From positions 9,114,001 to 9,178,000 of the forward strand of contig OX485806.1 in the NCBI GenBank assembly GCA_950295325.1: a DNA stretch of 64,000 nucleotides, in the 5' to 3' direction. Source of the stretch: Polytrichum commune. Its lineage: Eukaryota; Streptophyta; Polytrichopsida; Polytrichales; Polytrichaceae. A model generated the notes under the pieces. It did not search any database. It saw nothing but the letters and a program-made list of their open reading frames with translations, and was not told the origin of the DNA. Both the position numbers and the translations under genes were made by a program. Each line of letters opens with the position of its first letter. Position 1 is the first letter of the stretch. Below, in pieces: positions 24,401-27,400 of this stretch.

Positions 24401-27400
24401 CAGTGCCACACTAAACCAGGTAACTAGTGGAAGTGAAGCTGGAGATTTTGAAGAGCTAAATTAGAGAAATTCTTAAGTCATTTGAGTCAATCCAGTAATA
24501 TACTGTAGGCTCAGTTTTTCTGGTAGGAATAATATCTGGTCATATAGGTTTTTAAAGTCACCCTAAGAAATGAATGTGCACTCATTTGCTGTTGTGTTTT
24601 CTGACTTCAGAAGCTGCAATTACTTCAATGGGAGCTATCCTGTCAATGCTCTTCCAAACATGTGAGTAATCTGGACATGGCGAAACATAGTACCCATACC
24701 ATAAGCCTGCATACATATATAATTTTAATTATATTTTTCATGCAACTCCACTTTGACCCACTTTAGTGTTTTGGTGAGCTTGGCCATAGAAATCTAATCA
24801 ACGTAATACTCCCTGAGGTTGAGGTAGATGGCTAATCCTATATAATCATGATGCCTTGAGATGTGAAGAGAATTGTTTTTCTTTAATATTCTAGCATGCA
24901 TGAAGGGTCAATCTGTAACATGGAGGTTATCCAAGATAATGTCACAATAGAAGAGTGCGTATTGATGCCCTATATTCTCTGCAATGTACAGTAATGTCAC
25001 ACAAAATTGCTTTGACAACTCTACCAAGGATAGTGACTCGTGTCGGCGAACTCTTTCTTGCGACAAATTAAAATACAACTATAACCAAGGTATGGTAGTT
25101 GACTTAATTTAAGCATCCTCCCTTCATTTTGTCTGTTGTGTTGTGTATATATTATTCAATAGCACCCATCGATTTCGTTATACTGCTTTGTCAAGCAAGG
25201 TGCCAGGGTTTAGGGTTTAAACCTTGATTCCTTGGGGTGTAGTCTAACATATCTCAAGCACTAGATTTTGAAGTACCTCTTTCTGACTACAGATATATTC
25301 CATCAAATTGTGTTATGCAGGTTGTACACCTTGTGCACCCAATCAAAACATCTACGACTTCATAAATTGCCTTTGTGGACCGATTGGTAAATATTCACCA
25401 TCTTTAAGGCTACTGATCTCTGTATGGTTTGTGGCTGGTCATTTCAATACTGTTCCATAGATTGACTCAGAAATCAGGAAAATGATGATCTAAAGAATAT
25501 GCTTGTAGTCAAAAGGATTGAAGGCTTGAATAATAATGTTTGCCTGCAGGCTGGAGCCCTAATGGAAGCAGTAAACTTCCACTGGGAGCTATTGTGGGCG
25601 GCGTTGTTGGAGGAGTTGCAGTTTTGTTGGCCATCTTTGCTCTGTACCGGTACAAGCCTACAGTCTTCACGGATCCCTTCCAAAAGAAGAAAATCGATTG
25701 TAAAGACTAATTCTCATCCCCACAATTTGACTTAATTTATTTCATGATTTCTATGTAATAGACATCAGCTAGTACTGCTCACAAAGATGCGTTGAGACCC
25801 TCTTTAGGGTTTTTAACAACACCCTTGACTATCTTAAAACTATCTGATTTTATATATTTTATATTTTATATGATTTGCAGATGGTGCATGGGAGATTCCG
25901 AGTGGAGTCCAGAGATATTCATTTCAAGAACTTTCAAAGGCGACTGAGAATTGGAGTGAATCACATGAAATAGGGGAAGGCGGGTTTGGGAAAGTGTTTC
26001 ACGGAACTCTCGAGGACGGCAAATCAGTGGCCATCAAGCGTGCTTCCAATCTGAGTTTGCAAGGCACACTCGAGTTCCGAAACGAAGTCGTGTTGCTCAG
26101 TCGATTACACCATCGCCACCTTGTTCATCTCGAAGGCTTCTGCGATGACCGAGGATTGCAGGTAAATTCTACTAGCTAGCAACATGCTTGTTGCACATGC
26201 AACAAATAAACCACACACCATTGCATACTCAACGTAGTTGGTTGCTCATCATCCACAAATGTTAGAGGTTTCCCTCGTGTCAACATATGCATGGTCAAGA
26301 GACTGTAACTGCTAGCAAAATGCGAGAGAAATCGGAATGTTGTGTTGCGCCTTTTGCATGCTTTGTAATGGCGAAGCACAACATGTGAGAGTTTCCGGAA
26401 AATGATGGATGAACAAATGTCATCACAAAAATGTGACATTCCGCTTGGATAAAAAGGTGACCATCCGCGTGACAATGTGTTTTTGATATAAGTTATATAC
26501 CCCCATTAATTCCCTAGGCTGGACCTCCAAATGTTGTAGTGATGAGGCCAATTGATTTTGTTGACATGACTATTCATAGTTGGATTAGAGGAGGTACATT
26601 ATTACCCTTAATTGATGACCTTGTCATGGCATGGTCACCACGTCCGTTGTTGGACACACGACTTTGCCTTGCCTTCTGTTAGAGTAGGCGCCTACTATAG
26701 CTTGTGGCAAGGCTCATCACATCCTTTACCTAGTTCGTAGTGGTTACGCTAAGCGATTTTGTTGTTGTGTTGAAACATTACTACATATGAGGAGGCACAT
26801 GATCACTTGTGATTGATGACCTTGCCATGGCTTGACCACTTGGTCAGTAGTAATGGACACCTGCCATCTTGCCAGCGGTTGTAGTGAGCACCCAATACAT
26901 ACCTTGTTGCTGCAAGGCTCCTCATAGTTTGTTATGCATGTTTGCAGATGACATGCATCGATTGCTGATGATGTATAAGTAATTTTTTGTTTGTGTGCAC
27001 TTTGAGGTTTAGCCTAAATTTTGAGTTCGGCCTCAGGAATAATTAGGAGTTCCCAATTAGGTCAAGAGATTGATGCTTATTGCAACATCGCTGATAGCTT
27101 GTACTTGAATCCTGTGATTTGCAGATTCTTGTGTACGAGTTCATGAAGAATGGGAATTTGAGTGATCTCCTCCTAGGTAAGTGTCTAAATGAGCCATGGA
27201 ACGCATGTTGAAAATATTTCACTAAAATATCAACAGAGGTAATATATAACAAAATCTTGATGATTTGATTTGCAGGAATCAAGAAAGGCAGACCGCTCAG
27301 TTGGCACAAGCGTCTTGAAATTTCTGTTGGAGTAGCGCAGGGTTTGGATTATCTTCACTCCTTCGCAGTACATAACACCAACCCTAAAAGCCATAATTGC

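What the first reader, a model, noticed from the sequence alone, without database searches (positions are those of the whole stretch)
25321..25386. CxxC...CxC pair in the receptor ectodomain, as in the H2O2 sensor HPCA1
The predicted ectodomain carries CTPC (376-379) and CLC (391-393) just outside the membrane, all on one 66-bp exon. In Arabidopsis HPCA1 (an LRR-VIII kinase), as I recall, two extracellular pairs spaced CxxC and CxC and about ten residues apart are needed for sensing hydrogen peroxide. Here the spacing between the pairs is 11 residues against about 9. If homologous, extracellular redox sensing by this receptor type would be old in land plants.
Basis: partly seen in the sequence, partly recalled or inferred. 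Interest (0 to 1): 0.7.

Follow-up and report, generated by a model that had tools for sequence, protein, structure and literature searches.

The report
Receptor kinase with HPCA1-like cysteine tail
A plant cell-surface receptor gene carries, on one small exon just outside the membrane, four cysteines spaced much like those of the Arabidopsis hydrogen-peroxide sensor HPCA1, but common ancestry and redox sensing are not shown and the gene differs from HPCA1 in other parts.

Summary
In detail: 25321-25386 is a symmetric (phase 1-1) GT-AG exon reading CTPC (376-379) and CLC (391-393) in a predicted 22-exon, 810-residue LRR receptor kinase.

It is also shallow: with cysteines fixed, 1355 of 5000 shuffles align as well, and PDB sequence searches with the tail do not list HPCA1. 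HPCA1 has at least 110 residues between CxC and membrane; here about 12. The kinase lies outside LRR-VIII-1 in the best trees, yet inclusion is not rejected (p-AU 0.19-0.33). The reference kinases were recalled, few of them checked.

No other plant sequence could be fetched, so homology across land plants stays untested. Most likely this is a disulfide-bonded membrane-proximal tail; redox switching is possible. A review already calls HPCA1 highly conserved in land plants; a quillwort genome paper reports it undetected there and in most lycophytes.

The parts
18419..18491 (+). Exon 1: start codon and signal peptide
   Evidence: Hydropathy 1.72 over residues 1-19; start exon chosen by eye, weak donor 2.4
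19785..23926 (+). Exons 2-10: LRR N-cap (C47-x8-C56) and LRRs; exons 4-10 are each 72 nt in phase 2
24072..24661 (+). Exons 11-12: last LRRs, with C323 and C327
24992..25089 (+). Exon 13: tail with C348, C359, C365
   Evidence: Only one of 8 frame-keeping acceptors tested (24992) gives an open frame
25321..25386 (+). Exon 14, the finding: CTPC (376-379) and CLC (391-393), symmetric phase 1-1
25550..25699 (+). Exon 15: short link, membrane helix about 406-428, start of the inner juxtamembrane part
25881..29932 (+). Exons 16-22: kinase with VAIK, HRD and DFG motifs, and C-terminal tail
   Evidence: PF07714 3.8e-44; motifs read directly from the sequence

Best explanation
The exon encodes the end of a Cys-rich, membrane-proximal tail of an LRR receptor kinase. 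Shown by sequence: the frame, four cysteines on one symmetric exon, the six-cysteine order shared with HPCA1, and a kinase with VAIK, HRD and DFG. Inferred: in the oxidising cell wall space these cysteines mostly form disulfides that cap the last LRR and stiffen the short link to the membrane; the CxxC and CxC pairs are the likeliest to open, close or swap with apoplastic oxidation and so alter receptor packing and kinase activity, as proposed for HPCA1. I read it as a short-stalk tail of HPCA1 type; whether by descent or convergence is open.
For: Six cysteines in HPCA1's order with spacings within two residues. C-[ST]-P-C-x-P in both, noticed after the fact (C-x-P-C-x-P...CxC in 51 of 200,000 shuffles). 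Same place after the last LRR. Kinase scores near LRR-VIII-1: five of six recalled members 250-267 bits, the sixth 232, beside THE1 (CrRLK1L) 271.
Against: Cys-fixed shuffles reach the alignment score in 1355 of 5000 (four-Cys segment, global) and 410 of 5000 (LRRs plus tail, global) tries. PDB sequence searches with the tail do not list HPCA1 at E up to 10. HPCA1 segment 437-546 has no counterpart. Best kinase trees do not join the gene to LRR-VIII-1. No oxidation, transcript or activity data.
Confidence: 0.5

Rival explanations
1. A purely structural Cys-rich stalk of an LRR receptor kinase lineage unrelated to LRR-VIII-1; the likeness to HPCA1 is convergence of cysteine spacing.
For: Four-Cys pattern in 4% of tail shuffles; alignment not above Cys-fixed shuffles; kinase outside LRR-VIII-1 in the best trees; a CxC/CxxxCxC cluster also occurs in the receptor kinase NCRK (PMC9893415, passages).
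Against: Six-Cys order in only 0.2% of shuffles, and the same location.
Confidence: 0.4
2. A true HPCA1/LRR-VIII-1 orthologue that senses H2O2 or quinones through these cysteines.
For: Six-Cys order; LRR-VIII-1-type kinase residues such as KRA and LLSR-HH; LRR-VIII-1 plus window not rejected (p-AU 0.188, 0.332, 0.295).
Against: Best trees place it outside; CrRLK1L-type residues at other sites; no HPCA1 stalk segment; extra cysteines.
Confidence: 0.15
3. A metal-binding CxxC/CxC thiolate site.
For: The pair types are those of zinc sites (general knowledge; not searched).
Against: Extracellular, oxidising setting.
Confidence: 0.03

Closest known systems
HPCA1/CARD1 of Arabidopsis (ectodomain PDB 21az, 9vbd; At5g49760 is the recalled locus)
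   Same: LRR ectodomain, N-cap C-x8-C, tail order C..C..CxxC..CxC; kinase 45-47% identical to the recalled HPCA1 kinase
   Different: Tail spacings 10/16/11 against 9/15/9; extra C323, C327, C365; no 110-residue segment before the membrane; kinase not grouped with it
CrRLK1L kinases (THE1, HERK1, FERONIA) and Pto
   Same: Kinase 44-49% identical; weakly joined in trees (73/80; 62/40 and 70/72)
   Different: CrRLK1L ectodomains are malectin-like (general knowledge); this one gives LRR models only
NCRK (PMC9893415, passages)
   Same: Short Cys-rich extracellular motif tied to H2O2 responses
   Different: Motif WxCxCx13-18CxxxCxC in a Cys-rich, not LRR, ectodomain

Membership tests
LRR-VIII-1 (HPCA1 subfamily) | Kinase groups with LRR-VIII-1 | tested here: inconclusive
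   Outside in the best trees; inclusion not rejected, p-AU 0.188, 0.332 and 0.295. The LRR-VIII-1 references were recalled and not checked.
LRR-VIII-1 (HPCA1 subfamily) | CxxC and CxC pairs after the last LRR | tested here: met
   That this is general in the subfamily is recalled; only HPCA1 itself was checked.
HPCA1 | The cysteines occupy homologous columns | tested here: inconclusive
   Order matches, but alignment is no better than Cys-fixed shuffles and PDB searches with the tail do not list HPCA1
HPCA1 | At least 110 residues between CxC and the membrane | tested here: not met
   About 12 here; HPCA1 437-546 lies in 21az
HPCA1 | H2O2-driven cysteine oxidation raises kinase activity | not testable with these tools
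   Needs bench work
Plant LRR receptor kinases | Signal peptide, LRRs, one membrane helix, kinase | tested here: met
   (first model)
CrRLK1L | Malectin-like ectodomain | tested here: not met
   Pfam at E up to 0.001 gives only LRR and kinase models

The most novel reading that the evidence does not exclude
A minimal extracellular redox module, held on a single skippable symmetric exon, sits in an LRR receptor kinase outside LRR-VIII and without HPCA1's stalk segment; skipping the exon would keep frame and give a receptor without the four cysteines, so splicing could set redox sensitivity.
Probability: 0.1. Interest if true: 0.6.

Novelty: new variant of a known kind. Interest (0 to 1): 0.35.

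Why it matters
If the tail is homologous to HPCA1's, it would give a short, testable form of a plant extracellular redox receptor and bear on statements in print that pull apart: a review calls HPCA1 highly conserved in land plants (PMC12121397, passages), while a quillwort genome paper did not detect HPCA1 in Isoetes sinensis and most lycophytes (PMC10541799, passages). If not homologous, it is an ordinary disulfide-rich receptor stalk.

Tried and rejected
Rejected: the 23-exon, 830-residue model (37-nt intron). Searches used that model or its tail; repeat the tail tests with the 22-exon model. The kinase part is the same in both.

Protein A hits are taken as chance.

Literature: ten searches. 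In the capped listings that I saw, no title or abstract start told of an alignment of the HPCA1 cysteines across bryophytes, ferns and lycophytes; this holds for the held open-access library only. One search listed only unrelated papers. Papers seen by passages only: PMC12040379, PMC10541799, PMC12069490, PMC12559887, PMC13142920, PMC9893415, PMC12884015, PMC12121397, PMC10978910, PMC9767415. The primary papers (Wu 2020, Laohavisit 2020) and two by Fichman are not held. Positions 421/424/434/436 come from the PDB chain; that these are the four redox cysteines of Wu 2020 is recalled.

Full report
What is there. The gene runs on the + strand from 18419 to 29932. A first join of exons gave 23 exons and 830 residues, but one intron was only 37 nt, with a weak donor (2.8) and the gene's poorest acceptor (-3.3) in a leave-one-out site score. 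Dropping the 60-nt candidate exon 24895-24954 keeps the frame; of 8 frame-keeping acceptors found between 24700 and 24992, only 24992 gives an open frame, although its site score is the poor one just named.

The exon. Exon 14 (25321-25386) starts and ends in phase 1. Skipping it would keep the frame and remove exactly the four cysteines. No transcript data were available, so inclusion and skipping are both predictions.

HPCA1 as yardstick. I recalled HPCA1 and checked it: PDB chain 21az_A agrees with the ectodomain at 520 of 521 aligned positions. HPCA1 ectodomain cysteines are 53, 62, 124, 395, 405, 421, 424, 434 and 436. The window protein has 47, 56, 136, 223, 323, 327, 348, 359, 365, 376, 379, 391 and 393 between signal peptide and membrane. 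Both have an N-cap C-x8-C. Tail: C348-x10-C359-x16-C376xxC379-x11-C391xC393 against C395-x9-C405-x15-C421xxC424-x9-C434xC436. C395 and C405 are reported as essential for quinone perception (PMC12040379, passages); [quoted passage not shown] That the four are 421-436 is recalled from a primary paper that is not held.

Against homology. In shuffles of the window segment with Cys fixed, 1355 of 5000 (four-Cys, global) and 410 of 5000 (LRRs plus tail, global) reach the observed score; with Cys free, 104 and 22 of 5000. The middle segments are weaker: six-Cys 532 of 5000 with Cys free, 1965 with Cys fixed; last LRR plus six-Cys 275 and 1134 (all). So the likeness lies mainly in the cysteines. Neither version of the tail lists HPCA1 in a PDB sequence search at E up to 10. 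HPCA1 continues for at least 110 residues after CxC (to 546 in 21az); here about 12 residues separate CxC from the membrane.

Kinase. By phmmer the closest of 20 recalled kinases are THE1 (270.6 bits), At1g79620 (266.5), At1g06840 and HERK1 (263.8 each) and HPCA1 (261.4). In the PDB the best of the 60 chains shown is SymRK, 252 bits. In trees of 13, 21 and 15 rows the window sits beside CrRLK1L/Pto with weak support: 86/91 with FERONIA and Pto, 73/80, 62/40, and 70/72 on the first 212 residues alone; in that last tree the LRR-VIII-1 rows themselves split into two groups. Holding the window with LRR-VIII-1 is not rejected (p-AU 0.188, 0.332, 0.295). For the 15-row sets I dropped six rows (CERK1, WAK1, At1g53430, ERECTA, IOS1, BRI1). 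Sites where the window agrees with all or all but one row of one group and with no row of the other number 12 for LRR-VIII-1 and 13 for CrRLK1L/Pto; many also occur in other families. Placement is unresolved.

Mechanism. The tail lies in the oxidising cell wall space, so its nine cysteines (323 to 393) most likely form structural disulfides, with an odd one over. Clustered CxxC and CxC pairs could exchange or open under oxidants and change how the LRR end sits on the membrane; this is inference by analogy with HPCA1. NCRK shows that a different Cys cluster in a receptor kinase has also been tied to H2O2 responses (PMC9893415, passages), so such clusters need not be homologous.

Known or new. 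[quoted passage not shown] a quillwort genome paper says HPCA1 was not detected in Isoetes sinensis and most lycophytes (PMC10541799, passages). What would be new is the short stalk and the one-exon module.

Noticed in passing
35822-38388, - strand: Pieces of an aldo/keto reductase gene (PF00248 in three open frames).
   Followed up: partly
45597-46733, - strand: Pentatricopeptide repeat protein, 378-residue open frame (PF13041, 1.7e-72).
   Followed up: partly
1600-4054, - strand: Row of open frames, one with an RNase H domain (PF00075); probably a broken non-LTR retroelement, a label that is my reading.
   Followed up: no
23389-23476 and 29339-29426: 88-nt repeat, 80% alike, inside two introns of the receptor gene, perhaps a mobile-element remnant.
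   Followed up: no
20018-20095 and 20197-20274: Local direct repeat, 77% alike, in intron 2.
   Followed up: no
24895-24954: Open 60-nt stretch with AG and GT borders that keeps the frame if added but needs a 37-nt intron; might be a rare alternative exon.
   Followed up: partly
29915-29932: The receptor ends in PLAPR; as I recall, some LRR-VIII-1 kinases end in a similar P-x-x-x-PR. Not tested.
   Followed up: no
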